The position numbers were made by a program, and so were the translations under genes. Shown piece after piece: positions 363-22,848 of a stretch of 64,000 nucleotides of DNA (position 1 is its first letter; the number at the start of each line of letters is the position of its first letter). The DNA lies in contig JAHEBZ010000001.1 in the NCBI GenBank assembly GCA_024641985.1, forward strand, positions 1 to 64,000, in the 5' to 3' direction. The DNA is from Rhodoluna sp. (lineage in GTDB: Bacteria; Actinomycetota; Actinomycetes; Actinomycetales; Microbacteriaceae). The notes under the pieces were generated by a model, which had not been told where the DNA came from, searched no databases, and worked only from the letters and a program-made list of their open reading frames with translations.

Positions 363-1808
363 ATGACCAAGCCGAAGTACGCAAGCGCGCTCGACATCAA
401 GCGCCCCATCATGCCGGGCTTCTACCCCGACCCCTCGATTGTGCGCGTTGGCGAAACTTTTTATCTTGCAAACTCAACCTTTGAATATGGGCCAGGTGTG
501 CCTATCCATTCATCCGCGGATTTAGTGAACTGGAAGTTCGAGGGGCACTCATTGCCGACCGCGCGGCACATGAACATTGCCGGCATGGAAAACTCGATGG
601 GTATTTTTGCGCCAACGCTGCGCCACCACAACGGCAAGTTTTATATGATCACCACATTGACCGACGGAAAGTGGCAGCTTTTGGTAACGGCCGATACCCC
701 CGCCGGCCCATGGAGTGACCCGGTTCGGATCGATCTGTTTGGCATCGACCCAGACCTCTTCTGGGATGACAACGGTGACTGCTACATGACCTACGCTTCG
801 GTGCCGCTGGACGGCATTGGTCAGGTCAAAATTGACACCGAAACCGGACACGTTCTTGGTGAGCCTTACTTGATTACGCAGGGCACGGGCGGCAAATTTC
901 CAGAGGGTGCCCACATTTACAAGGTGGGCGACTGGTTCTATTTGCTAATCGCCGAAGGTGGCACTGAGCGCGGCCACGCAGTAACCGTGGCTCGCTCGAA
1001 AAGTGTTTCTGGGCCCTTTGAGTTCGATCTTAAATCTCCACTACTCACCAATCGCGGCACAAATTTCAAGATTCAGAGCACTGGTCACGCCGATTTAGTT
1101 CAACGGGTCGATGGCCATTGGGCGATGGTGTTTCACGGCACTCGGCCAAAAGGCTCTAGTCCCGAGTGGCACATCATGGGCCGAGAAACCTGTGCTGTTG
1201 AAATTGAATGGTGCGATGGCTGGCCGGTGCTTGGCCCACCGATTGAACCGGCTTCAGACCCTAGCGTTGTCGAAGTTCTAGATTCCAACAGCGAGCTGCC
1301 CGCCGACTGGATCTCGGTTGGTTCGTTTCCGGTCGACAACTGCAAAAAGACACCGAACGGCTTGCTTTTCAACGGTTTTGTGGCACGTCGCCAAACCACT
1401 CAACATTTTGAGTTGGTTGCCAACTTTGAGTCATCAACACCACACGGCATTGGAGTTGGCATCGACGGCCGTCACCACCTGGGGCTCATGAAGTGGGGTA
1501 ACGAGGTCAAAGCCACCTGGACAATCGGGGATCACCGAACCGACATAGGTGCGGTTGAAGTTGGCGACAGAGAATTTGAATTTGTGATTCGAAGCGTTGC
1601 CATGGAAGGGGGTTTTCACGCGCCGGTTGGCCCAGACAAGTTGCACTGCTCGGTGCGTTTCAGCGATGGTTCCGAGTTAGAAGTTGCGGCGCTTGATGGG
1701 CGGTACATCAGCACCGAAGTTGCCGGCGGCATGACCGGACGCGTGATTGGTGTGCTTGCTTTCGAGTCTGCACTGCTAACAAAGTGGAGTTACAAGAGCG
1801 CTTCGTAA
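363..1808 (+). CDS. Glycoside hydrolase family 43 (beta-xylosidase / alpha-L-arabinofuranosidase type)
   Basis: This 481-residue protein begins with the GH43 motif PGFYPDPS. The three expected acidic residues are visible: D23 (base) in YPDPS, D129 in FGIDPDLF and E181 (acid) in KFPEGAHIY. Residues 1 to about 300 form the five-bladed propeller and the rest is a beta-sandwich of the kind found at the C-terminus of this family. There is no signal peptide, so it should act in the cytoplasm on imported glycosides, removing xylosyl or arabinosyl groups; the exact sugar cannot be read from sequence. A GAGGAG ribosome site lies just before ATG 363. Its 3' end overlaps the convergent alpha-like gene by 19 bp. 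Confidence 0.88.
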   Translation: MTKPKYASALDIKRPIMPGFYPDPSIVRVGETFYLANSTFEYGPGVPIHSSADLVNWKFEGHSLPTARHMNIAGMENSMGIFAPTLRHHNGKFYMITTLTDGKWQLLVTADTPAGPWSDPVRIDLFGIDPDLFWDDNGDCYMTYASVPLDGIGQVKIDTETGHVLGEPYLITQGTGGKFPEGAHIYKVGDWFYLLIAEGGTERGHAVTVARSKSVSGPFEFDLKSPLLTNRGTNFKIQSTGHADLVQRVDGHWAMVFHGTRPKGSSPEWHIMGRETCAVEIEWCDGWPVLGPPIEPASDPSVVEVLDSNSELPADWISVGSFPVDNCKKTPNGLLFNGFVARRQTTQHFELVANFESSTPHGIGVGIDGRHHLGLMKWGNEVKATWTIGDHRTDIGAVEVGDREFEFVIRSVAMEGGFHAPVGPDKLHCSVRFSDGSELEVAALDGRYISTEVAGGMTGRVIGVLAFESALLTKWSYKSAS

Positions 1809-2797
1809 AGCAGTTTGTGCTCGGCAACAACATCAAACGACGAAAACTCGGCAAGTTCGTGCCATTCGTGGCCGCCCCACTCGCTCGTGACAAAGCCTTC
1901 GAAGCCCTGCTCTGTAAGCGCTTTGATGAGTTCAGCGGTTGGGTCGCTGATTGCACCAGCTTGGTCATCGGTATCCCAAAACTTTAGGTGCACACCCCTC
2001 ACTAGGGGCATTGCCTCGGCCCAGTCGCTAACCTTTGCCTTGCCCATGCGAGTGACAAGCGAGAGCAAAAGCGATGTTGCGGCAGTTGAGGGGGATGACG
2101 GCAGCCATTTGCCAAAAATCACTGGTCGAAGTTCGCTCAGGCTCAGGTTTGTCCAGGCACCAACCAACTCGCCTACCTGCTGCTGGCTAAACCCCGAATG
2201 CCCAAGTGCATCAACAAAACTTGGTGGCAATGATCTCATGCAAAGACTCGAATCGAAAAGCAGGCCAAAGTTGGGCGAATTTAGTTCGCGCATTAGGTCT
2301 AGGTTTTCTTTTACCGGCGATGAGCCCACCTCTTGGGTTCCCTGAACTTCGAGCACCAAAGTGACTCCAAGCCTCTCGGCTATCGGCACAATCTCGCGAA
2401 GCTCATCCAGGCTGGCAAACCCCAGCCCAAGCCGAGCAAACCCAGCACCCAACTCTGCCGCTAGCTCAAGTTGCACTCGCACCTGTGCCACCACTTGGTC
2501 GTGATCTAGAAACTTTGCTTGGGCCACAGTGCGATCGATGTAGATGCCCAACTGCCCAACCTTGGCACCGTATTTTGCCAGCACGGCTTTGGTGTCTTCA
2601 ACCTGCTTTGCCGGCGGGCGGGGGTAGTTTCTGAAGTGCTGGGGGCCATCAAGTTCGACAATCTTTGACAGCCCTGAGGCAAGAACGTCGTCAAGTAGTT
2701 CGCATGCGCTGCGCTCGGCAGCCATTAGTTCATTCGAAAAAGAAAATAGGGTTACGGCCCACTGGCCTTGCCACGCTGTCTGATTCATGCACACCAA
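1790..2797 (-). CDS. C-glycoside deglycosidase alpha-subunit-like TIM barrel (copy 1, divergent)
   Basis: The 335-residue protein belongs to the xylose-isomerase-like TIM barrel superfamily and resembles the two alpha subunits at 18324 and 19781. All share the N-terminal TL(Y/F)S block, a C-terminal (S/T)SE(W/Y) block and four metal ligands, here E150, D182, H270 and E306. In the family these hold Mn2+ or a similar ion, and with a beta subunit the enzyme cleaves the C-C bond of 3-oxo-C-glycosides. It lacks the FVPDF wording of the other two (LLFDSS instead) and is the most diverged copy, so it could also be an isomerase of the released sugar. The beta-like partner starts 100 bp away on the opposite strand, which differs from the tandem beta-alpha order elsewhere. 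ATG at 2788 is an alternative start. Confidence 0.72.
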   Translation of the reverse strand: MVCMNQTAWQGQWAVTLFSFSNELMAAERSACELLDDVLASGLSKIVELDGPQHFRNYPRPPAKQVEDTKAVLAKYGAKVGQLGIYIDRTVAQAKFLDHDQVVAQVRVQLELAAELGAGFARLGLGFASLDELREIVPIAERLGVTLVLEVQGTQEVGSSPVKENLDLMRELNSPNFGLLFDSSLCMRSLPPSFVDALGHSGFSQQQVGELVGAWTNLSLSELRPVIFGKWLPSSPSTAATSLLLSLVTRMGKAKVSDWAEAMPLVRGVHLKFWDTDDQAGAISDPTAELIKALTEQGFEGFVTSEWGGHEWHELAEFSSFDVVAEHKLLYEALL

Positions 2798-2802
2798 CTT
2801 AC

Positions 2803-2815
2803 TTAGGTAGACTAA
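2803..2815. promoter_or_regulatory. Palindromic operator candidate TTAGGTAGACTAA
   Basis: This is the core of an inverted repeat, ACTTAG-GTAGA-CTAAGT at 2801-2817, directly upstream of the minus-strand alpha-like gene. A 12-of-13 match (TTAGGTAAACTAA) lies at 6580, upstream of the isomerase gene. The two are best read as sites for one unidentified regulator. Confidence 0.5.
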
Positions 2816-2821
2816 GTCAAA

Positions 2822-2835
2822 ACTTTTGTTGAAAA
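2822..2835. promoter_or_regulatory. Diverged copy of the ROK-type operator
   Basis: ACTTTTGTTGAAAA differs by one base from the first 14 bases of the 19-bp repeat found at 10562 and 15223. It sits in the 100-bp divergent promoter region between the alpha-like and beta-like genes, suggesting shared control with the rest of the island. Confidence 0.45.
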
Positions 2836-2897
2836 AGAGTCTAAGTATCTAGGCTAAGGCAATCGTTGTTCGAAGATCACGAAGAAGTGGAATCGTT

Positions 2898-3278
2898 ATG
2901 ACGCTCACCAGTCAAGTAATTGTGGCCGATGAAATTGACCGCAGAGGTGACTTCATCGAGATGAGCATTGGGCTGCCCTGGTTTCGGTCGCTTCGCATGT
3001 CGCACATCATTGGCCTCACCGCTTCGGCAGATCAAGGGCCAGCTTCGCCGATCGAGATGTTGATCAACGGCAACTGGCACAACGTTGCCGCGCTCGGCCA
3101 GTTAACTGACCTTGAATGGTATCCGCAAGACCGCCAAACCATCAGATTTGTCGAACCCCGGCAACAATTCGAACTCTATTTATCTTTCGAACTTTTGATG
3201 CCAAACCTATTTATGGGCCCGCAACACCCGGTGGTAATAACCACTTCGGCCAAGCAGGCGGTGGCTGTTGCCAGCTGA
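2898..3278 (+). CDS. C-glycoside deglycosidase beta-subunit-like protein (copy 1)
   Basis: The 126-residue protein matches the other two small proteins at 17908 and 19376 in length and layout. The shared hallmark is a P-W-(F/Y)-R-(S/A)-L motif near residue 30, here GLPWFRSL, then an (I/L)NG segment and a C-terminal PYM/PNL-type strand. The family is the beta-sandwich partner that completes the active site of C-deglycosylation enzymes. Here it heads a transcript with the GH106-like gene, which overlaps its stop by 11 bp, and its alpha-like partner is divergent. The copy is clearly more diverged than the other two, so the family call is good but the substrate is unknown. Confidence 0.68.
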   Translation: MTLTSQVIVADEIDRRGDFIEMSIGLPWFRSLRMSHIIGLTASADQGPASPIEMLINGNWHNVAALGQLTDLEWYPQDRQTIRFVEPRQQFELYLSFELLMPNLFMGPQHPVVITTSAKQAVAVAS

Positions 3279-6200
3279 TTTTTGGCACCAGATATTTACG
3301 CCAACCTCAGCATCGAGGCCTCGGGTGTGGTGGCACTGGATGAACGGCAACATAGACACCGAAGGTTTGATAGCAGACCTCGATTGGATGCAACGTGTTG
3401 GCATCGGTGGGGCTCAAATTTTTGAAGGCGGCATGGGCTCACCCCAGGTGGTGCAGAACAGGTTGGTCTATGGATCGCCTGAGTGGTACGACGCATTCAC
3501 GGCCGCGCTTACTGCGGCTAGTGAAAAAGGGATCGAAATCTCGGTTGCCTCTAGCGGTGGGTGGAGTGTTTTGGGGGCGCCCTGGGTGAAACCAGAGAAC
3601 GCGATGAAAAAGTTTGTGTGGTCTGAAACGCTTGTGAGGGGCGGTCAGTCGGCCCACCCGCTCAACCCGCTGCCTAATTGCGAGGGGCCGTTTCAAGATC
3701 TGACCAAGTGGGCGCGCGATCAAAGGTTTAGTTTTGGCGGCGATGTGGCTTGTTTCGCCATACCTCACAACGATAATTTCACCCGGCTTCTGCCCGCATC
3801 GATCGAAGTTAGTCGCGATTTCACCGGTGATCTAGCTGCGTTGAACGACTCAAAATTTGGCTCCTGGATTTCGATGCAGCGGGACGTTACTAAAACCGAT
3901 GAAGTTTTTGTAACTTACAGGTTCGAGAGTCTAACCACGATTGGTTCGGCCCAGATCGGTGTTGCCGGGCCAATAGGTTTCGGTGCACCCGAGCTGGCCA
4001 ACGCATACCTGCAGGTGAGTGCCGATGGGGTGGAATTCACCGAAATCGCATCATTTGAGATGAGCGAAACTATGGGCCAAATGGGTGAAACCGCGAGTCG
4101 AACATTGTCTTTTGACCCTGTGCAGGCCAAAGCCGTGCGGCTTAGGCTATGCGGTAAACCTCTTGGCGAAAGTTTGCCAGCCATGATGCCTGGGGTTAGC
4201 CCACTTGGTTTCAAGCCAAAAGATTTCGATAAATTCATGCTTGCCGAATTTGCCTTGCACTCGGGTGGCAGGGTTCACGCGGCCGAATACAAGTCAGCCT
4301 TTTCAATTTCGGCCGACTATTTCTCGCTGAACAAGCGTGTCGAGCACAAACAAGTCATTGACCCCTCGACCATAATCGATGTCACACAATTCATTGATGA
4401 GAATGACGTGCTGAACTGGGTTGCGCCCGAGGGGGAATGGCAGATCATCAGAATCGGCTACTCGCTCACCGGTCACGAAAACGGCCCGGCTCCGGCAGAG
4501 GCCACCGGTCTCGAAGTCGACAAGCTTGACCCGGTGCGCATCAGCAGTTATCTCGAAACCTTTTTCACCCCACTGTTTGCAGAACTTGAAAGTCGTGGGT
4601 TGAGCGCTTCGAGCATCCAAGCAATTTTGACCGACAGCATTGAATCGCGTTCGCAAAACTTTACCGAAGGCATTTTTGACGAGTTCGAAAAACGCAGAGG
4701 TTATTCGATGCGTCAGTGGCTTCCCGCAATAGCCGGTTGGGTAGTCGGTTCGACCGGGGCTACCGATAAATTCTTGTATGACTTTAGGCTCACCCTCAGC
4801 GATTTGGTAAGCGACTGCATGTATCGCCTCATAAAAGAGTTTGCGCATTCAAATGGTGCCCGCTATTACAGCGAGGCGCTCGAAGACAGCAGGCCTCAGC
4901 TGGGCGATGACCTTGAAATGCGCTCTCACGCCGATGTGCCAATGGGTGCGATGTGGTCTTGGCTCGAGGGTGAGTTGCCAAAGCAAACCTATTTGGCCGA
5001 CCTAAAAGGCGCATCATCGGTGGCCCACGTTTATGGCAAGTCACACACCGGCTGTGAATCATTTAGCACCTTCGGCAGGCCATTCGTGTGGTCTCCGCAA
5101 GAGCTCAAGAGAGTCGCCGACCTCGAGCTAGCCTTGGGCGTCACGCTCTTCAACATTCACTCGTCGCCGCATCAGCCTTCGGTTATAACCGGTCCAGGCG
5201 TAACCCTGACCCCAACGCTTGGGCAGGTTTTCACTCGAAACGAAACCTGGGCCGAAATGGCCGGGCCATGGGTCGAATACATCGCCCGTGCCAGTCACGT
5301 TCTTAATCAGGGCAAGCCGGTCGCCGAAATTCTTTATTTCACCGGATGCGAGGCACCCGTGACAGGCATTTGGGGCTCGGCAGAGTTCGACGTGCCTTCG
5401 GGCTATGACTTTGACTTTGTTTCGGCCGATGGCTTGTTGAACAACATTTCGGCTGATGGCGGGAGGCTAGTATCTGCCCAGACGAGCTATTCGATTCTTT
5501 ATCTGGGCGGACACTCGGAGTTGTTGACCTGTGAAATCTTGCGAAAGGTGCTCTCGCTCGCCGAATCTGGCGTGAAAATTTTTGGGGCAAAGCCAACTTA
5601 TTCGCCATCGCTTGCCGATTCGCCAGAAGAATTTGATCGCCTGGCTGCTTCAATTTGGGGCAGTGCCAATGTTGCGGTGGTTGGCTCAATAGCCCAGGCC
5701 GTTGAAATCGCCAAGGCGCAAGGTTTGGTTGCTATCGACTGGCGGTTCAGTCAAAATGGCAAGCCTCTCGACTCGCGACTGATTGGGAATGCCGACTTGC
5801 GCTGCATTCGACGCGCACTTGATGGCAGCGACATCTACTTTGTTGCCAATGCCAAAAACCAACCCATCAAGTTTTTCGCCCGGTTCGCCGCATCTGGCGC
5901 ACACGCGTTCGTGTTTGATGCGGTTGACCCTACAAACAAACCGAAGCGAATCGCTGCCGACTCAATCGAACTCGATTTGACAGCATATGGGTCTTGTTTT
6001 GTCGTTATTTCAGATGATGAATCGGCTGCGCTCGCGTTTGATTTCGAATCAGGCACATCCACTGGTCTGACCGAAATTGATGAGTGGCAACTCGAAGTTT
6101 GTGGCGAGAAGTTAGTCACCGGTTCTACTTTTGACTTGGCGGCCAACGCCGATGAGCGAATTCGATACTTCTCGGGCGTCTTCGCGGCCAAGGCATCGTT

Positions 6201-6555
6201 CGAATTGACCGCCGAACAGGTTGGCGCGAGCGTAGGTGCGGTTGCCCTCACGCTTCCAGGCCTCACTGGCATTGCCGAGGTCTCAGTCAATGGAGCCTTT
6301 GTCGGCGTCGTTTGGGCAAAGGGTCAAACCATCGGTATCTCGGTAGCAACTAAAGCCGGCACAAACGAAATCTCGCTCAAGGTCGCAAACGGCTGGCGAA
6401 ACCGACTCATCGGCGATCAGCTGGGCAAGGCCGCATTCGAAGGCCAGTCAAAGACTTATCTGGCTTATCCAATCTTTGAACAAAATGCCGAACCTGCATC
6501 AAGTGGTCTGTTGTTGCCTGCGCAGCTCACATTTGCCATAGTGGAATCGTTATAA
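3268..6555 (+). CDS. GH106-like glycoside hydrolase (alpha-L-rhamnosidase family)
   Basis: The 1095-residue protein opens with RVWWHWMNGNID followed by a GIGGAQIFEGG segment, the N-terminal hallmark of GH106 rhamnosidases. Further family-like blocks are SHTGCESFSTFGRPFVWSP and NIHSSPHQPS in the middle and a galactose-binding-like beta-sandwich with ANGWRNRLIGD near the end. No signal peptide is present, so it should work inside the cell, probably removing rhamnose (or a related deoxysugar) from an imported glycoside before C-deglycosylation. Start is TTG 3268, overlapping the beta-like gene by 11 bp, which implies translational coupling; the next in-frame ATG (3341) would delete the conserved WWHWM block. 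No rhamnose catabolic genes are in the window. Confidence 0.83.
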   Translation: MPADFWHQIFTPTSASRPRVWWHWMNGNIDTEGLIADLDWMQRVGIGGAQIFEGGMGSPQVVQNRLVYGSPEWYDAFTAALTAASEKGIEISVASSGGWSVLGAPWVKPENAMKKFVWSETLVRGGQSAHPLNPLPNCEGPFQDLTKWARDQRFSFGGDVACFAIPHNDNFTRLLPASIEVSRDFTGDLAALNDSKFGSWISMQRDVTKTDEVFVTYRFESLTTIGSAQIGVAGPIGFGAPELANAYLQVSADGVEFTEIASFEMSETMGQMGETASRTLSFDPVQAKAVRLRLCGKPLGESLPAMMPGVSPLGFKPKDFDKFMLAEFALHSGGRVHAAEYKSAFSISADYFSLNKRVEHKQVIDPSTIIDVTQFIDENDVLNWVAPEGEWQIIRIGYSLTGHENGPAPAEATGLEVDKLDPVRISSYLETFFTPLFAELESRGLSASSIQAILTDSIESRSQNFTEGIFDEFEKRRGYSMRQWLPAIAGWVVGSTGATDKFLYDFRLTLSDLVSDCMYRLIKEFAHSNGARYYSEALEDSRPQLGDDLEMRSHADVPMGAMWSWLEGELPKQTYLADLKGASSVAHVYGKSHTGCESFSTFGRPFVWSPQELKRVADLELALGVTLFNIHSSPHQPSVITGPGVTLTPTLGQVFTRNETWAEMAGPWVEYIARASHVLNQGKPVAEILYFTGCEAPVTGIWGSAEFDVPSGYDFDFVSADGLLNNISADGGRLVSAQTSYSILYLGGHSELLTCEILRKVLSLAESGVKIFGAKPTYSPSLADSPEEFDRLAASIWGSANVAVVGSIAQAVEIAKAQGLVAIDWRFSQNGKPLDSRLIGNADLRCIRRALDGSDIYFVANAKNQPIKFFARFAASGAHAFVFDAVDPTNKPKRIAADSIELDLTAYGSCFVVISDDESAALAFDFESGTSTGLTEIDEWQLEVCGEKLVTGSTFDLAANADERIRYFSGVFAAKASFELTAEQVGASVGAVALTLPGLTGIAEVSVNGAFVGVVWAKGQTIGISVATKAGTNEISLKVANGWRNRLIGDQLGKAAFEGQSKTYLAYPIFEQNAEPASSGLLLPAQLTFAIVESL

Positions 6556-7447: not shown

Positions 7448-9019
7448 ATGTTAAACCCACACATAGTAATCGTAGGTAGTGGTCCAATCGGCGCTACCTA
7501 TGCTCGTGAAATTCTCGAGAACCACAAGACCGCAACTGTCACCATGCTCGAGATGGGTCCGCAACTAACCGAGATTCCTGGCCAATCTGTAAAAAACATC
7601 GCCAACGATGACGCCCGCGCTAAGGCTCGCGCCATGTCGCAGGGCCCTCAGGCCGATGAAGAAACTCGCGCAAAACTGGGTCTTCCATATCTACAAGAGG
7701 GCACTTTGACAGCACGTCAGGGTACTCACTTAATTGACTTTGGTGGCACAGGCAGTGGGCACTCTAAAAGCTTCCCGATGGCAGCCGTTGCAACGAATGT
7801 TGGCGGTCAGGGTGCCCACTGGACCTGTGCGGTTCCGCGCCCAGAGTTCAGCGAAAAAATTGACTTCATTGCCGAGGGCGAGTGGGAAACCATGATTTCT
7901 CGCGCTGAGGTTTTGCTGCGCGCAAACAAGACCCCATTTAGCAAGTCGCCAATCGGTGCCGCTATTCGCGCTGCACTCAAAGAAGAGTTCAAAGACATTT
8001 CTACCGACAAATACGAGCCATACTTCTTGCCGGTGTCAGCCGAAGAGCTTCCGGATGGCCGCATGCACTGGGGTGGCACCGACTTTGTTTTTGGCCCGCT
8101 TATCGAAAAGGGCAACCCGCTTGCCTCGCGCTTCACGCTCAAGCCGCTCACAATGGCCCGCAAAATATTGCTCGAGGGCAACAAAGCGGTTGGTGTTCTA
8201 ATCGAAGATGCGGTTACTGGCGAGCAGTCTGAATTGTTAGCCGACCGAGTTGTGGTTGCGGCCGATGCCATGCGCACCCCGCAGTTGCTTTGGGCTTCTG
8301 GCGTTCGCCCGCCCGCCCTTGGCCACTACCTAACCGAGCACCCGGTTTGTTTCAGTTCAATCGCACTCGACCCTAAAAAGCTGGCTACCTATGCAAGCGA
8401 GGCAGATTACGAGGCCGAGAAGGCGCTCGCTGCCCTTAGCCCAGGCGACCCGGTTAGCGGCGTCACGCGCGTCCCATTCGTCGAACCACTGCACCCATTC
8501 TCGGCGCAAATTATGTATGTCACCAAGCCGCCGTTCCCAATGGCCGACGACAACCCTTTGAAAAACCACTCATACGGATTTGCCATGGCTGGTTGGGGTG
8601 GCCGCAAGTTCCCTCGATTCGAGGACGCCGTGACTTTCGATGACAACGAGCTCGACTATCGCGGGTTTCCAAACATCAACGTCGAATATTCGCTCACCGA
8701 ACGTGAAGAGAAAGAAATGGAAGACGTCAAGGTGTTCATGCACCGCGCCGCCGATGCGCTTGGCGCTTTCGTGCCCGGCATGGGGGAGCCTCGCCTGATG
8801 ACCCCGGGCACCAGCCTGCACTACATGGGCACGCACCGAATTGGTCCTAATGATGACGGCACGAGCGTGTGCGACACCTATTCAAGAGTGTGGAACTACC
8901 AGAATCTCTACACCGGTGGCAATGGCACAATTCCTACGGCGAATGCGGTGAACCCAACCCTCACCAGCGTTGCAATTGCAGTGCGTGGGGCGCAAAAGCT
9001 CGTGTCTGAGCTTAACTAG
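7448..9019 (+). CDS. Pyranose-oxidase-like FAD oxidoreductase, C-glycoside 3-oxidase type (copy 1)
   Basis: The 523-residue GMC-superfamily flavoprotein has the dinucleotide motif IVGSGPIGATYA at the N-terminus. Around residue 120 is GGQGAHWTCAVPRP, which aligns with the pyranose 2-oxidase segment whose His carries covalent FAD. The C-terminal catalytic pair is visible as His in SLHYMGTHRIG and Asn in NAVNPTLTS. Related actinobacterial enzymes oxidise the C3 hydroxyl of C- and O-glycosides or free glucose, which prepares the substrate for deglycosylation. It is a paralogue of the protein at 16427. A GCAAGGAA ribosome site precedes ATG. Its stop TAG shares a base with the GTG start of the MFS gene. 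Confidence 0.8.
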   Translation: MLNPHIVIVGSGPIGATYAREILENHKTATVTMLEMGPQLTEIPGQSVKNIANDDARAKARAMSQGPQADEETRAKLGLPYLQEGTLTARQGTHLIDFGGTGSGHSKSFPMAAVATNVGGQGAHWTCAVPRPEFSEKIDFIAEGEWETMISRAEVLLRANKTPFSKSPIGAAIRAALKEEFKDISTDKYEPYFLPVSAEELPDGRMHWGGTDFVFGPLIEKGNPLASRFTLKPLTMARKILLEGNKAVGVLIEDAVTGEQSELLADRVVVAADAMRTPQLLWASGVRPPALGHYLTEHPVCFSSIALDPKKLATYASEADYEAEKALAALSPGDPVSGVTRVPFVEPLHPFSAQIMYVTKPPFPMADDNPLKNHSYGFAMAGWGGRKFPRFEDAVTFDDNELDYRGFPNINVEYSLTEREEKEMEDVKVFMHRAADALGAFVPGMGEPRLMTPGTSLHYMGTHRIGPNDDGTSVCDTYSRVWNYQNLYTGGNGTIPTANAVNPTLTSVAIAVRGAQKLVSELN

Positions 9020-13895: not shown

Positions 13896-15182
13896 CTAGT
13901 GACCGAGAATTGCTCGGGGCGAGCTTTCGGTTATCCACTTTGTCATGTGAGACCGGCTGAAAATCTCGGTCTGGGCTAATGCTGCACCGCCAATCAATCC
14001 CTCCTCGTGATTCGGGTTTGCCGGCACAATCCGAAGGTCGCGAGTTGCCAGTGGCAGTGAGCGGCGATAAACGGTCTGGCGAACAGCAGCTAAGAATAGG
14101 TCGCCGGTCGAAGCAATGGTACCGCCAACCACCAGCATGCCTGGGTTGAAAAAATTCACCAAGGTGGCCAGGGTCTCGCCAACCATGCGCCCGGCGCGTG
14201 CAACCACCTCGATGCAATATGCATCGCCGCTGTTGGCCCCTTCTGAAATATCAATCGGCGACAAAAAGCCTCGCGTCTTCAAGCGTTCGGCCAGGAAAGG
14301 AGATTTGCTTTCTTTCGCCGCAATTTCACCATCGCGCGCAAGAGCCCAGCCGCCGGCGATCGCCTCGAGGCAACCAATCTGCCCACAGCGGCAAACAACC
14401 TTGCTTTCTTCTGCAATAGCAACGTGGCCAATGTCTCCAGCCGATCCGTTGGCTCCGCGGTGAACCTTACCGCCCGAAATAATGCCGGCACCAATTCCCG
14501 AACCAACCTTTACAAACAGCAGGTTGTCGGCAGCAGTGCCGTGCTGGTTGGTTGCTTTCAAAACAGCTTGCTCGCCAAGTGCCATCAGGTTCACGTCGTT
14601 GTCGACCCAACACGGTGCACCAAAGGCATTCAACATAAATCCACGGATGTCGAACCCGTTCCAGCCAGGCATGATCGGCGGAGCGACTGGCTTACCTGTT
14701 TCAAACTCGACAGGGCCAGGCACGCCAATGATGACAGCCCAGACATCTGGAAGATTGTGTTGCTTGATTAGGGAGCTTGCCATCTTGACAACTCGGTCGA
14801 GCGACTTCTCTGGGCCTTCGGTGATGTCCCAGTTTTCGTGCACGCTCTCGACAATTTTGCCTGCGAGGTCTGTCACGGCAACGCCAAGGTTTCGTGCGCC
14901 AAATTCGACCACAACAAACGTGCCGATTTCATACTTGAATCGCAGGGTTCGCGGAACCCGACCGCCGGTTGAAACACCAAAGTCGGCTTCTTCAAGCAGG
15001 CCAAGGTTTAGAGCCTCTTCAACTCGCTGGGTGACAATGCTTCGGCCTAGGCCCGAGAGTCGGCCAAGGTCTGAGCGGGTTTGAGCTCTGCCGGTGCGCA
15101 CAAGCTCGGTCAAAACAAAGAGAGCGTCGTGCTCTTCGATGGTCATCTCGTCGACCGAGACAACCGTTTCTAGAGAATTCAA
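13896..15182 (-). CDS. ROK-family transcriptional repressor
   Basis: The 428-residue protein has a winged helix-turn-helix in the first 80 residues (RSDLGRLSGLGRSIVTQRV) followed by a ROK sugar-kinase-like domain. The ROK zinc site is present as CRCGQIGCLEAIAGG, with GHVAIAE just before it, and the phosphate-binding-like segment FVKVGSGIGAGI is seen. Proteins with this architecture (XylR, NagC, Mlc types) bind operators until a sugar ligand releases them. It lies convergent to the ABC operon and divergent from the oxidase/deglycosidase operon, both preceded by the same 19-bp repeat, so it is the probable local regulator. The inducer is unknown. Confidence 0.9.
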   Translation of the reverse strand: MNSLETVVSVDEMTIEEHDALFVLTELVRTGRAQTRSDLGRLSGLGRSIVTQRVEEALNLGLLEEADFGVSTGGRVPRTLRFKYEIGTFVVVEFGARNLGVAVTDLAGKIVESVHENWDITEGPEKSLDRVVKMASSLIKQHNLPDVWAVIIGVPGPVEFETGKPVAPPIMPGWNGFDIRGFMLNAFGAPCWVDNDVNLMALGEQAVLKATNQHGTAADNLLFVKVGSGIGAGIISGGKVHRGANGSAGDIGHVAIAEESKVVCRCGQIGCLEAIAGGWALARDGEIAAKESKSPFLAERLKTRGFLSPIDISEGANSGDAYCIEVVARAGRMVGETLATLVNFFNPGMLVVGGTIASTGDLFLAAVRQTVYRRSLPLATRDLRIVPANPNHEEGLIGGAALAQTEIFSRSHMTKWITESSPRAILGH

Positions 15183-17911: not shown

Positions 17912-18324
17912 TGAGAGACGCCATCATCGAGCCGGGTTCGCTCAAGCTCGAAGGCAACACGCTGTCGGTGGGTGTTCGCATGCCTTGGTATCGCGCCCTG
18001 CCACTGTCTTCGGTTTGCGACCTGGTGCTAGACATCGATGGTCAGGCAATCGATAAGGCCTCAACCCGCTGGCTCATCAACGGCGTGAACTACCGCGAAG
18101 ACGAATTGCCGCCTCTTTATCAAGACTGGTGGTTCGTTGCTGATACCGCGATCCTTTCGGGCACGCTTAGCGACGAAGTAGTCGCACAGCTTGACCCAAC
18201 TGCCGACCACGCGGTTCACGTTGGCTTGGGCATCTACATCCCCTACATCGATGCCGGAAACGGAACCCTTTTGGTTCACGAGGGCAACCGAGAGACCATG
18301 AAGCTAGAAAAGAAGGCTGCGTAA
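17908..18324 (+). CDS. C-glycoside deglycosidase beta subunit (copy 2)
   Basis: The 138-residue protein contains the family motif MPWYRALPLSSVCDL, then LINGVNYREDELPPLY and a C-terminal GLGIYIPYID strand. It should form the beta-sandwich subunit that assembles with the alpha subunit encoded immediately downstream (one-base overlap). A strong AAAGGAG ribosome site ends seven bases before ATG 17908; the track start at 17758 lies inside the flavoprotein gene and is not used. In characterised enzymes the beta subunit completes the active-site pocket of the C-C cleaving complex. Confidence 0.85.
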   Translation: MMRDAIIEPGSLKLEGNTLSVGVRMPWYRALPLSSVCDLVLDIDGQAIDKASTRWLINGVNYREDELPPLYQDWWFVADTAILSGTLSDEVVAQLDPTADHAVHVGLGIYIPYIDAGNGTLLVHEGNRETMKLEKKAA

Positions 18325-19376
18325 TGTCTGCACTGAAGCAAGGCCACCTACAGGGCACAACCCTCTACAGCTATACCCGCATGTTCCACCAGCGCGAAAT
18401 GACAATGGAAGAACTCATCCGTGAAGTCGCTCGCCGAGGCCAAGGCCCGGGCCTAGAGGTCATCGGCTTTCAGAGCATTCGCAATTTTCCGAACCCTGGT
18501 GACGAGTTCATTGGCAAGTTCAAAGATCTAATCGCAGAACTTGGCCTGATTCCAACCTCGCTGGCCGTCAACGCCGACTTGGGTTTGCGTCGCGACCGCT
18601 TGCTTACCCACGACGAAATGATCGACTACATGGCCGCGCAGATCAACCTTGCCTCAAAGCTCGGGTTCCCTCTGGCCCGCGTGCAGATCTCAATGACCCC
18701 AGATGTGATGGAGGCGTTGCTTCCGGTTGCTCAAAAGGCAAATGTGAAGTTGGGCCTCGAAGTTCACTCGCACCACTCGCCTCGCCACCAAGAAATGGTC
18801 GCTCACATCGAGCGCTACGAAAAGTTGAACTCGGGTTTCTTGGGCTTCGTGCCAGACTTCGGTGCCACCACCGTTGGCATGCCACCGAGCCTGATCAAAA
18901 AGTATCGCGAAACCGGTGTGCCAGAAGAGATGATTACCGAGCTTCTCGACCTTTGGCAGGTTCACCACGCTGAAGGCGCACCGAAGGATGGCCGCACTCA
19001 GGGCATGCGCATGGGCCAGGTTGCTGGCATCGCCGCTAAGTATGGCTTCGGCGAAACCGCTATCGATTATGCAATCAACCACTGCGGTCTTTTCGGCCAC
19101 GCTGATCCAAGCGAGTGGGCCGACATCATGCACCTGGTCTGGCACACCCACGGCAAGTTCTTTGGCATGGATGAAAACGGCGACGAGCCAACCACTCCGT
19201 TGGTCGACATCCTCAAGGTCTACGCCGACCACGGCTACACCGGCTCTATCTCAAGCGAATACGAAGGTTTTCACTGGGATAAATTCAGCAACCCATTCGA
19301 GCAGGTCGACGGTCACCAGAAGCGCATTCGCGAAATCATGCAAGGCTATGGCTACGAAGTAAGGACAAAGGCATAA
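18324..19376 (+). CDS. C-glycoside deglycosidase alpha subunit (copy 2)
   Basis: The 350-residue TIM barrel of the xylose-isomerase-like superfamily has a complete set of candidate metal ligands: E146 in GLEVHSHH, D178 in FVPDFG, H276 in HTHGKFF and E312 in SSEYEGFH. Characterised relatives (CarB/DfgA/DgpC type) use a divalent metal to cleave the C-C bond between a 3-oxo-sugar and an aromatic aglycone, giving 1,5-anhydro- or lactone-type sugar products. The gene is translationally coupled to beta copies on both sides (one-base overlaps), so a fixed subunit ratio is likely. Deglycosidase assignment rests on the beta partner and the 3-oxidase neighbour. Confidence 0.83.
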   Translation: MSALKQGHLQGTTLYSYTRMFHQREMTMEELIREVARRGQGPGLEVIGFQSIRNFPNPGDEFIGKFKDLIAELGLIPTSLAVNADLGLRRDRLLTHDEMIDYMAAQINLASKLGFPLARVQISMTPDVMEALLPVAQKANVKLGLEVHSHHSPRHQEMVAHIERYEKLNSGFLGFVPDFGATTVGMPPSLIKKYRETGVPEEMITELLDLWQVHHAEGAPKDGRTQGMRMGQVAGIAAKYGFGETAIDYAINHCGLFGHADPSEWADIMHLVWHTHGKFFGMDENGDEPTTPLVDILKVYADHGYTGSISSEYEGFHWDKFSNPFEQVDGHQKRIREIMQGYGYEVRTKA

Positions 19377-19777
19377 TGGCAACTCACGACACACTCCTCA
19401 ATACAAAGAGCCTGGCTGCAACACCAACCGGTTTGTCGCTGGCACTGACAGTTCCTTGGTATCGCAGTCTCTGGGTCTCATCGGTTACCTCAATCACAGT
19501 TTCGATCGATGGGCAAGAAGTTCCCCAAGACAACTTGTCATTTCGCCTGAACGGGCAGTCTTGGCCAATGAGCGAAGTTCCGAACCAATGGGAAACCCTT
19601 TGGTTCATGCAGGATCGTGCCTATTTAGATATGGATTTAGGTGCGGCCGGCGTAACTGGTGAAGATCACGAGATCACTATTCACGTAGAAATGCGCTTGC
19701 CCTACATGCAGATCAAGCCTGGCTTGTATCTTCCGAATATCGTTCACCAAGTAGTCACTTTGAAAGTGCAGGCATAA
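19376..19777 (+). CDS. C-glycoside deglycosidase beta subunit (copy 3)
   Basis: The 133-residue protein has the motif VPWYRSLWVSSVTSI, a FRLNGQSW segment and a C-terminal MRLPYMQIKPGLYLPN strand, matching the beta subunit at 17908. ATG 19376 overlaps the alpha copy 2 stop by one base, and the next alpha gene starts four bases after its own stop. The second beta-alpha unit in the same operon suggests a different substrate range or linkage position (for example 6-C versus 8-C glucosides), which is speculation. Confidence 0.84.
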   Translation: MATHDTLLNTKSLAATPTGLSLALTVPWYRSLWVSSVTSITVSIDGQEVPQDNLSFRLNGQSWPMSEVPNQWETLWFMQDRAYLDMDLGAAGVTGEDHEITIHVEMRLPYMQIKPGLYLPNIVHQVVTLKVQA

Positions 19778-19780
19778 AAA

Positions 19781-20785
19781 ATGACCGAAGTAGCAACTAA
19801 AGCTAAATTCAAGCTCGGCGTCACCCTCTATTCATTCGCATCTGAGTGGGCTGCGGGTGAATACAACCTCGACTCGATGCTAAAGCGAGTTGTTGACATG
19901 GGCATCGGCCCCGGTGTCGAAATCATGGCCTCCCAGACCGTGCGCACCTATCCAGAAACTCCAGACGAATTCGTCAAGGAATGGTTGGGCTACGTAGATA
20001 AGTACGGATTCGTTCCTTCGATGTATGGCACCAACTTGGACATGGGGCGTAACCGCGCTAAGGAAATGACTCTGGACGAAGAATATGAATTCGTGCTGAA
20101 GCAGATCGAAGCTGGAGCAAAGATGGGGTTCCCGACCATCAAGATCCAGAGTGCAACCGGTGAATTGCTTACCAAACTTCTGCCGCATGCTGAGCGCTTG
20201 AATGTAAAGCTCGGCTACGAGATTCACGCTCCTGAAGGCCCAAACACCGACAAGATCATGAAGATCCGCGATACCTATGCCAAGTTAGACAGCCCGCTAC
20301 TCGGGTTCGTGCCTGACTTCTCGTCGACCATGCACACCATGGGTCGCTCGATGCTGCAGACCTTCCGTGACCGCGGCTTGGATGAGGCAGCGATTCAGAA
20401 GGCGCTTGAGTTCTGGGCATCAGATGCACCAAACCCTGAGCGAATTGCAGGTTTCGTTGACTACCTAGCTAGCCGCGGAATCGATGCCAATACCCTCGGT
20501 CCATTCGGCCGCATGGCGTTCAACATGAATGGCCACATTGCTCCTGAAGAGTGGAAAGACATCATGCACCAGGTGGTTCACATTCACGCCAAGTTCTTCG
20601 ACATGAACGAAGACGGTTCGGTTGAGGCAATCGACTACGAAAAGCACACTCGCATTTTTGCTGAAGGCGGCTTCGACGGGTACATCTCATCTGAATGGGA
20701 AGGTCACGCCTTTGCCGACATCGGCCAGGTTGACCCGTTCGTGGTGGTGAAGCAGCAGCAAGACTTCATGAAGAAATTCATGTAA
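19781..20785 (+). CDS. C-glycoside deglycosidase alpha subunit (copy 3)
   Basis: The 334-residue TIM barrel resembles copy 2 throughout (GVTLYSFASEW, GPGVEIM, GFVPDFSSTMH, HIHAKFFDMNEDG, YISSEWEGHA). Candidate metal ligands are E147, D179, H269 and E305. It is the partner of the beta subunit at 19376. The conserved HxH-KFF block and SSE(W/Y)EG block distinguish copies 2 and 3 from the more diverged copy 1. A short gap of 37 bp with GAAGGGA before the next gene keeps it in the same transcript. Confidence 0.83.
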   Translation: MTEVATKAKFKLGVTLYSFASEWAAGEYNLDSMLKRVVDMGIGPGVEIMASQTVRTYPETPDEFVKEWLGYVDKYGFVPSMYGTNLDMGRNRAKEMTLDEEYEFVLKQIEAGAKMGFPTIKIQSATGELLTKLLPHAERLNVKLGYEIHAPEGPNTDKIMKIRDTYAKLDSPLLGFVPDFSSTMHTMGRSMLQTFRDRGLDEAAIQKALEFWASDAPNPERIAGFVDYLASRGIDANTLGPFGRMAFNMNGHIAPEEWKDIMHQVVHIHAKFFDMNEDGSVEAIDYEKHTRIFAEGGFDGYISSEWEGHAFADIGQVDPFVVVKQQQDFMKKFM

Positions 20786-20822: not shown

Positions 20823-21833
20823 ATGTCGCAATCAACCCGCCCTGTAACGCTATTTACTGGTCAATGGGCCGACCTGCCTTTCGAAGAAGTTGCCCGTCTC
20901 GCGTCTTCTTGGGGCTACGACGGATTAGAAATTTGCACCTGGGGCGATCACCTCGATCTCAAACGTGCAGAGGAAGATCCGACGTATCTCCAAGGGCGTC
21001 GAGACATTCTCGACAAATACAACTTGAATGTCTACGCGATTTCTACCCACCTCAGTGGTCAGGCAGTCTGCGACAACCCGATCGACTTTCGTCACCAAGC
21101 AATTCTTCGCGATTACATGTGGGGCGATGGCGAAGCCGAGGGTGTTCGCCAACGTGCCGCCGAAGAGCAGAAGCGCGCGGCCCGAGTGGCTCGCAAGCTT
21201 GGCGTTGACACAGTTGTGGGGTTCACCGGTTCTAGCATCTGGCAGTACGTTGCTATGTTCCCACCGGTGCCCGAGTCGGTCATCGACGCCGGTTACCAAG
21301 ACTTTGCAGACCGCTGGAACCCGATTCTCGATGTCTTCGATGCCGAAGGAGTTCGCTTTGCACACGAGGTGCACCCTAGCGAAATCGCCTACGACTATTA
21401 CACGACGATAAAGACGCTTGAGGCAATAGACAACCGGCCAGCCTTCGGTTTGAACTGGGATCCATCTCACATGATGTGGCAAAACCTTGACCCGGTGGCA
21501 TTCATCCTTGATTTTGCCGATCGTATCTATCACGTTGACTGCAAAGACACACGCATGCGTCTAGGAAACGGCCGCAGGGGAGTGATGGGTTCACACCTGC
21601 CTTGGTCGCACATGCAGCGCGGCTGGGATTTCGTGTCTACCGGTCACGGCGATGTGCCGTGGGAAGACAGCTTCCGGGCCCTAGAATTCATCGGCTATAA
21701 AGGCCCGATCTCGATCGAATGGGAAGATGCCGGCATGGACCGCCTGCTGGGCGCCAAAGAGGCGGTGGGCTTTGTTCGTTCTTTGCTCTGGGAAAAGCCA
21801 GCGGGCGCGTTCGACGCAGCCTTCTCAAAGTAG
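20823..21833 (+). CDS. Xylose-isomerase-like TIM barrel sugar isomerase/epimerase
   Basis: The 336-residue protein belongs to the same superfamily as the alpha subunits but to a different branch. Its metal-binding blocks are FAHEVHPSEI, LNWDPSHMMW, IYHVDCKDT and SIEWEDAGMDR. It has no beta partner beside it. In 3-oxo-sugar pathways such proteins are thought to isomerise or epimerise the keto-sugar after the aglycone is released; the exact reaction is not readable here. It starts at ATG 20823 with a GAAGGGA ribosome site. Confidence 0.8.
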   Translation: MSQSTRPVTLFTGQWADLPFEEVARLASSWGYDGLEICTWGDHLDLKRAEEDPTYLQGRRDILDKYNLNVYAISTHLSGQAVCDNPIDFRHQAILRDYMWGDGEAEGVRQRAAEEQKRAARVARKLGVDTVVGFTGSSIWQYVAMFPPVPESVIDAGYQDFADRWNPILDVFDAEGVRFAHEVHPSEIAYDYYTTIKTLEAIDNRPAFGLNWDPSHMMWQNLDPVAFILDFADRIYHVDCKDTRMRLGNGRRGVMGSHLPWSHMQRGWDFVSTGHGDVPWEDSFRALEFIGYKGPISIEWEDAGMDRLLGAKEAVGFVRSLLWEKPAGAFDAAFSK

Positions 21834-22539: not shown

Positions 22540-22848
22540 ATGGCCGGACAGAAAATCCGCATTCGACTTAAGTCTTATGACCACGAGGTCATTGACACTT
22601 CGGCACGCAAGATCGTCGACACGGTTACCCGTGCCGGTGCGACCGTTGTGGGCCCAGTGCCTTTGCCGACCGAAAAGAACGTTGTGTGTGTGATCCGCTC
22701 ACCGCACAAATACAAAGACAGCCGCGAGCACTTCGAGATGCGCACCCACAAGCGCGTTATCGACATCATTGACCCAACTCCAAAGGCAGTTGACTCTCTG
22801 ATGCGTCTCGACCTTCCGGCAGACGTCAACATCGAGATCAAGCTCTAA
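22540..22848 (+). CDS. rpsJ: 30S ribosomal protein S10
   Basis: The 102-residue product has the S10 signature [14 protein letters not shown] and the RTHKRVIDI loop. First gene of the S10 operon; in the cell it also serves in transcription antitermination through NusB binding. It follows the structured leader and precedes rplC by eight bases. Confidence 0.98.

What the first reader, a model, noticed from the sequence alone, without database searches (positions are those of the whole stretch)
1790..3278. A third, diverged alpha/beta pair arranged head to head
The alpha-like gene (minus) and beta-like gene (plus) are split by a 100-bp divergent promoter instead of being in tandem. Both are the most diverged copies but keep the metal ligands (E150, D182, H270, E306) and the PWFR motif. 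They are linked to GH43 and GH106 genes, so this pair may act on differently decorated substrates or even on O-glycosides.
Basis: partly seen in the sequence, partly recalled or inferred. Interest (0 to 1): 0.65.

Follow-up and report, generated by a model that had tools for sequence, protein, structure and literature searches.

The report
C-glycoside lyase-like pair lacking catalytic residues
Beside two normal-looking pairs for cutting sugar-carbon bonds in plant compounds lies a third pair from a conserved, unstudied branch that keeps the metal site but has swapped the cutting residues, so it probably does another step of the same pathway.

Summary
A C-glycoside deglycosidase (CGD) alpha-like gene (1790-2788, minus) and a beta-like gene (2898-3278, plus) diverge from a 109-bp gap, and the metal ligands are intact. 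In AgCGD2 numbering the catalytic base His149 is Gln and its helper Glu307 is Gly. In the beta subunit, Tyr39 (needed for C-C cleavage in PuCGE) is Phe.

This is not decay. All 79 full-length relatives in a survey of 80 named loci, and 18 of 18 from an independent search, read E-Q-D-H-K-E-G. Every canonical alpha covering the site (96 of 96) has His and Glu. The clade is separate in trees built without these columns, evolves under purifying selection, and in the family sample occurs only in genomes that also have canonical CGDs. It exists, apparently unstudied, in Arthrobacter globiformis NBRC 12137, source of the solved AgCGD2. Head-to-head layout recurs (19 loci). In 24 others the two genes are fused, so association is very likely.

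Best mechanism, inferred: a Mn-dependent proton-transfer enzyme (keto-isomerase or epimerase) on keto-glycosides that supports the canonical lyases. The GH43/GH106 link is local to this genome. A C-glycoside lyase by the known mechanism is unlikely. Activity is untested.

The parts
1790..2788 (-). alpha3: CGD-alpha-like TIM barrel (ATG at 2788; ORF extends to TTG 2797). From the ATG: metal ligands E147, D179, H267, K269, E303; Q149 and G305 in place of catalytic His and helper Glu
2342..2344 (-). codon of Gln149 (AgCGD2 His149, catalytic base)
1874..1876 (-). codon of Gly305 (AgCGD2 Glu307, positions the water / activates His149)
2898..3278 (+). beta3: CGD-beta-like protein, 126 aa
2982..2984 (+). 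codon of Phe29 in PWFR (PuCGE Tyr39beta, required for C-C cleavage)
2789..2897 (.). 109-bp divergent intergenic region; operator-like palindrome ACTTAG-GTAGA-CTAAGT at 2801-2817 (not better than chance); no consensus sigma-70 promoter found
3268..6555 (+). GH106 alpha-L-rhamnosidase, start overlaps the beta3 stop by 11 bp (possible translational coupling)
363..1808 (+). GH43 glycosidase, convergent with alpha3 (19-bp overlap)
17914..20785 (+). the two canonical pairs beta1-alpha1-beta2-alpha2 (His149/Glu307 and PWYR intact)
20823..21833 (+). IolE-like TIM barrel with an E-V-H and an E-W-E motif; candidate hydratase or eliminase
7448..9019 (+). GMC oxidoreductase of the pyranose/C-glycoside oxidase type
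13896..15182 (-). ROK-family regulator; relatives lie next to alpha3/beta3 in most related clusters

Best explanation
Shown by sequence: the pair belongs to a conserved actinobacterial side branch of the C-glycoside deglycosidase family. The alpha subunit keeps the whole Mn site (E-D-H-K-E), but the lyase dyad (His149 base, Glu307 helper) is replaced by Gln and Gly, and the beta subunit lost the Tyr that activates the aglycone. Strongly supported: alpha and beta form one enzyme. Inferred: with the lyase base gone, the remaining metal/Glu site works as in sugar epimerases of the same fold, moving a proton next to the keto group through a metal-bound enediolate. The most useful such step would be turning the spontaneously formed, uncleavable 2-keto-C-glycosides back to the 3-keto form (or epimerising C2 or C4), so that the canonical CGDs encoded nearby can cleave them.
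For: Signature E-Q-D-H-K-E-G in 19/19 and 79/79 full-length relatives, against His and Glu in 96/96 canonical alphas covering the site. One joint change, no mixed states, on a tree built without these columns. Other substrate-contact positions also changed: Y17F in 77/80, S124Q in 70/80, M249R in 80/80, while the metal ligands are invariant. Tyr39beta is Ile 68, Tyr 7, Phe 1, Met 1, against Tyr in 101/101 canonical betas. 24 beta-alpha fusions. Purifying selection, dN/dS 0.13-0.24 for alpha3. In 400 family genomes alpha3 occurs only where canonical CGD occurs. Alpha model pLDDT 94.5; after CGDs, the named enzymes among its nearest solved structures are epimerases, first YcjR, a 3-keto-glucoside 4-epimerase. 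3-keto-C-glycosides isomerise spontaneously to 2-keto forms (PMC11239390); the 2-keto product tested was not cleaved by PuCGE (PMC13273386).
Against: No activity data. The site does not carry the E-P-x-N motif of YcjR or Hyi-type enzymes, and a profile comparison with YcjR is not convincing. The epimerase match in fold is weak (TM about 0.5-0.6) and is expected for canonical CGDs too. The invariant new Arg (position 249) could mean a quite different, perhaps anionic, substrate. Canonical CGDs elsewhere work without this partner (3 of 25 CGD-bearing family genomes lack it and one has a broken copy).
Confidence: 0.38

Rival explanations
1. A lyase with altered specificity: it still beta-eliminates a 3-keto-glycoside (for instance an O-glycoside or a C-glycoside with an anionic group) using another base, with Gln149 and the new Arg positioning the substrate.
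For: Metal site including Lys271 fully kept. Tyr39betaPhe in PuCGE loses C- but keeps O-glycoside activity (2.4-fold loss; PMC10628242). Some O-glycosides eliminate almost spontaneously after 3-oxidation (PMC11239390).
Against: His-to-Ala at this position leaves 10% (PuCGD) or 1.8% (MiCGD) activity (PMC8563793) and none in AtOGE. The extra Glu next to E147 that could replace it in relatives is missing in the window copy.
Confidence: 0.3
2. A substrate-binding or regulatory pseudoenzyme that senses keto-glycosides, perhaps together with the adjacent ROK regulator.
For: Catalytic dyad lost, faster evolution than the canonical pairs, next to ROK and often divergently transcribed in relatives.
Against: All five metal ligands invariant in 80/80, unusual for a pure sensor; no DNA-binding part.
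Confidence: 0.15
3. [quoted passage not shown]
For: The step is needed, and TIM-barrel isomerase-like proteins probably do it (AtHYD, preliminary, PMC10628242).
Against: A His mutant of a Bacteroides lyase is deficient in hydration (PMC13273386), which makes a His-less site a less likely hydratase; the IolE-like gene with E-V-H and E-W-E motifs is a better candidate. A small product would not need the aglycone-binding beta subunit.
Confidence: 0.12
4. A decaying duplicate of a CGD pair without function.
For: Loss of catalytic residues; broken copies in L111 and G227.
Against: Signature and metal site invariant across families, dN/dS 0.13-0.34 for alpha3 and beta3 in relatives, alpha-beta fusion in 24 loci.
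Confidence: 0.04

Closest known systems
AgCGD2 (AgCarB2-C2) of Arthrobacter globiformis NBRC 12137, PDB 7dnm/7dnn
   Same: Fold of alpha (TM 0.86), metal ligands E147, D179, H269, K271, E305, small beta partner; that strain also carries a member of the window pair's clade in the same gene cluster
   Different: His149 to Gln, Glu307 to Gly, Tyr17 to Phe, Ser124 to Gln in most of the clade (Phe in the window copy), Met249 to Arg; beta PWYR to PWFR (PWIR in most relatives); about 25% identity
PuCGD/PuCGE (DgpB-DgpC), PDB 7bvr/7exz
   Same: Alpha/beta architecture, Mn site
   Different: Catalytic His143 and Tyr39beta both missing in the window pair
Microbacterium testaceum CGD, PDB 8qrz/8un2
   Same: Natural beta-alpha fusion, as in 24 relatives of the window pair
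   Different: Keeps the catalytic His and Glu
YcjR, 3-keto-D-glucoside 4-epimerase of E. coli, PDB 6wn6; D-tagatose/allulose 3-epimerases
   Same: TIM barrel of the same superfamily, no lyase His; from general knowledge also an E-D-H-E metal site
   Different: No beta subunit, E-P-x-N motif, only weak fold match
AtOGE, O-glycoside beta-eliminase of Agrobacterium
   Same: TIM barrel, Mn site, 3-keto-glycoside chemistry
   Different: Has the catalytic His134 that the window pair lacks; no beta subunit

Membership tests
C-glycoside deglycosidase (CGD/CGE) | Alpha subunit with CGD TIM-barrel fold | tested here: met
   AlphaFold2 pLDDT 94.5, Foldseek best 7dnm_A E=4e-22, TM 0.86
C-glycoside deglycosidase (CGD/CGE) | Mn ligands E147, D179, H269, K271, E305 | tested here: met
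   all present in the window and 80/80 of the clade
C-glycoside deglycosidase (CGD/CGE) | Catalytic base His149 and helper Glu307 | tested here: not met
   Gln and Gly in the window and in all clade members covering the site
C-glycoside deglycosidase (CGD/CGE) | Beta subunit with Tyr39 (PWYR/YYR) | tested here: not met
   Phe in the window; Ile in 68 of 77 clade betas, Tyr in 7
C-glycoside deglycosidase (CGD/CGE) | Beta recognised as CGDB (PF19906) | tested here: not met
   11.6 bits against a cut-off of 27.6; beta1 39.0, beta2 60.8
C-glycoside deglycosidase (CGD/CGE) | Alpha and beta encoded side by side | tested here: met
   adjacent in nearly all loci, fused in 24; physical association itself not tested
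C-glycoside deglycosidase (CGD/CGE) | Cleavage of 3-keto-C-glycosides | not testable with these tools
   needs purified protein
Sugar 3-/4-epimerases of the AP_endonuc_2 superfamily (YcjR, DTE) | E-D-H-E metal site without a lyase His | tested here: met
   the epimerase side of the comparison is from general knowledge
Sugar 3-/4-epimerases of the AP_endonuc_2 superfamily (YcjR, DTE) | E-P-x-N motif and sequence kinship | tested here: not met
   E-V-Q-G instead; hhalign with YcjR aligns only 61 columns, probability 23
Sugar 3-/4-epimerases of the AP_endonuc_2 superfamily (YcjR, DTE) | Isomerase/epimerase activity | not testable with these tools
   needs purified protein

The most novel reading that the evidence does not exclude
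The pair is an undescribed two-subunit keto-C-glycoside isomerase or epimerase, related to the C-C lyases but with the catalytic dyad exchanged, and it supplies or repairs substrate for the canonical C-glycoside lyases, a hidden step of C-glycoside catabolism in Actinobacteria.
Probability: 0.33. Interest if true: 0.75.

Novelty: new variant of a known kind. Interest (0 to 1): 0.57.

Why it matters
The published CGD work characterises canonical pairs from species (A. globiformis NBRC 12137, Microbacterium trichothecenolyticum) whose genomes also encode a pair of the kind described here, but I found no mention of it in the papers I could search. A conserved enzyme that keeps the metal but lacks the lyase dyad asks which chemistry the pathway still needs. 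A candidate need is documented: 3-keto-C-glycosides drift to 2-keto forms, and the one tested was not cleaved by the lyase PuCGE. It also warns against annotating every alpha/beta pair in such clusters as a C-C lyase.

Tried and rejected
Genome scan with the single window protein found no relatives; the clade alignment did. That scan used a pattern containing EWGGH, which selects for the Gly, so the 18/18 from the unbiased search is the cleaner test for position 307; Gln149 was not selected. GH43/GH106 linkage tested and found only in the window among 80 loci (single-sequence profiles, so a remote GH43 could be missed). Operator palindrome in the gap: about 0.3 such palindromes expected by chance in 109 bp (my estimate), so not claimed. 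Profile comparison with YcjR uninformative. Beta tree: beta3 set compatible with one origin but weakly supported (57). Decay rejected on selection and conservation. Literature on the M. testaceum and Deinococcus CGDs and on YcjR is not held as open text.

Full report
WHAT IS THERE. The alpha-like ORF lies at 1790-2797 on the minus strand (first ATG at 2788), the beta-like ORF at 2898-3278 on the plus strand, with 109 bp between them. Alpha is an AP_endonuc_2 TIM barrel whose best solved relative is the alpha subunit of AgCGD2, a C-glycoside deglycosidase (CGD). Beta is a remote relative of AgCGD2 beta and falls below the Pfam CGDB cut-off, unlike beta1 and beta2. The genome (1.38 Mb held, 91% complete) shows exactly three alphas and three betas, all in this window. 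GH43 converges on alpha3. GH106 starts 11 bp inside the end of beta3.

THE ACTIVE SITE. Mori et al. 2021 (PMC8563793) define in AgCGD2: Mn ligands E147, D179, H269, K271, E305; base H149; E307 holding a water on H149. Bitter et al. 2023 (PMC10628242) add Tyr39 of beta, whose change to Phe costs about 12,000-fold in C-glycoside cleavage but only 2.4-fold in O-glycoside cleavage. In the window pair the metal ligands are all kept, but the base is Gln, the helper is Gly and the beta Tyr is Phe.

NOT AN ACCIDENT. An unbiased search of 400 genomes of the family gave further clusters with a relative of alpha3; the 18 read in full all have E-Q-D-H-K-E-G, while every alpha1/alpha2-type protein had His and Glu. 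A named-genome scan gave 80 loci: all 79 full-length relatives have the same signature, and 96 of 96 canonical alphas covering the positions have His and Glu. A distant homologue in another family (G625, L159) has Q and G too. On a tree made without the diagnostic columns the two residues change once and together, with no mixed states; the clade has SH-aLRT 99 and 93 with the distant homologue added. Position 249 is Arg in 80/80, position 17 Phe in 77/80, position 124 Gln in 70/80 (Phe in the window). In AgCGD2 these positions touch the aglycone or sugar or shape the cavity. Beta partners carry Ile in 68, Tyr in 7, Phe in 1 (the window) and Met in 1. In relatives dN/dS is 0.13-0.24 for alpha3 and 0.18-0.34 for beta3, higher than in alpha1/alpha2 (0.03-0.10) but clearly purifying.

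DO THE TWO SUBUNITS BELONG TOGETHER? Alpha3 and its beta are tandem in 34 loci, fused in one frame in 24 and head to head in 19. A fused relative (M. trichothecenolyticum) models as a beta-sandwich joined by a disordered linker to the barrel (pLDDT 87, pTM 0.87); its best fold matches are the natural fusion CGD of M. testaceum and the separate alpha and beta chains of other CGDs. Association of the window proteins is therefore very likely, though not shown experimentally. The head-to-head layout is a recurring state (Arthrobacter, Naasia, Amnibacterium, Pseudolysinimonas, Kribbella), not a peculiarity of this genome.

CONTEXT. Related clusters carry ROK, IolE-like, Gfo/Idh, beta2/alpha2, alpha1/beta1 and GMC oxidase genes. 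In 400 family genomes alpha3 is found only in genomes with canonical CGD; three of 25 CGD genomes lack it and one has a broken copy. AgCGD2 itself is encoded a few kilobases from such a pair in A. globiformis NBRC 12137 (L124). No GH43 or GH106 relative lies near alpha3 in any of the 80 loci. Neither GH protein of the window shows an obvious signal peptide on inspection, so trimming of imported glycosides inside the cell is the simplest reading (inference).

WHAT IT PROBABLY DOES. Shown: metal site kept; lyase base, helper and aglycone-activating Tyr replaced in a fixed way. Follows from published mutants: C-C cleavage by the known mechanism should be severely impaired. Inferred: within the same superfamily, enzymes with the E-D-H-E site and no His two residues after the first Glu are isomerases and epimerases that shuttle a proton by metal-bound Glu (general knowledge); the named enzymes nearest in fold after CGDs are of that kind, YcjR (3-keto-glucoside 4-epimerase) first. 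A need exists: 3-keto-C-glycosides, carminic acid included, isomerise without enzyme to 2-keto forms (PMC11239390), and the 2-keto form of nothofagin is not cleaved by PuCGE (PMC13273386). A keto-isomerase or epimerase feeding the canonical CGDs fits best, at about 0.38. An altered lyase (0.3), a sensor (0.15) and a hydratase (0.12) remain open.

VERDICT. Observation confirmed. Interpretation partly supported: own clade yes, pairing very likely, O-glycoside or decoration specificity not supported as stated. New variant of a known kind.

Noticed in passing
window 363-22217: The whole C-glycoside cluster sits as a roughly 22-kb island between tuf (ends 262) and the leader of the S10 operon (rpsJ at 22540). 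In two complete genomes of the same genus (L140, L143) the tuf-rpsJ distance is only 923 bp, and of 59 other genus members sampled only one (G411) has the GMC oxidase.
   Followed up: partly
L139 and L146 (G411:C297): A same-genus genome carries ROK-GMC2-beta1-alpha1-beta2-alpha2 at 62-84% identity to the window; alpha3 is not on that short contig.
   Followed up: partly
L115, L119, L120, L124-L126, L128 (alpha3/beta3 gap): The divergent gap in Arthrobacter holds a shared palindrome TGACATAAGTTTGTCA, with related forms in L066, L073, L087 and L089, next to a ROK regulator: candidate operator. The window gap has a different palindrome.
   Followed up: no
L111 7800-9023; L155 2302-3614 (G227): Two relatives of alpha3 are broken into two ORFs, so the gene can be lost.
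   Followed up: partly
L075, L109: Records titled Planococcus sp. and Stenotrophomonas maltophilia carry typical Microbacterium-like clusters on small contigs, probably contaminated assemblies.
   Followed up: no
window 20823-21833: The IolE-like protein of the cluster shows E-V-H and E-W-E motifs like the CGD lyase dyad, so it is a candidate hydratase or O-glycoside eliminase (motifs read by eye).
   Followed up: no
L056, L058, L069, L118, L064, L077 (beta3): A minority of clade betas keep PWYR although their alphas lack the dyad; these may be a separate functional subgroup.
   Followed up: no
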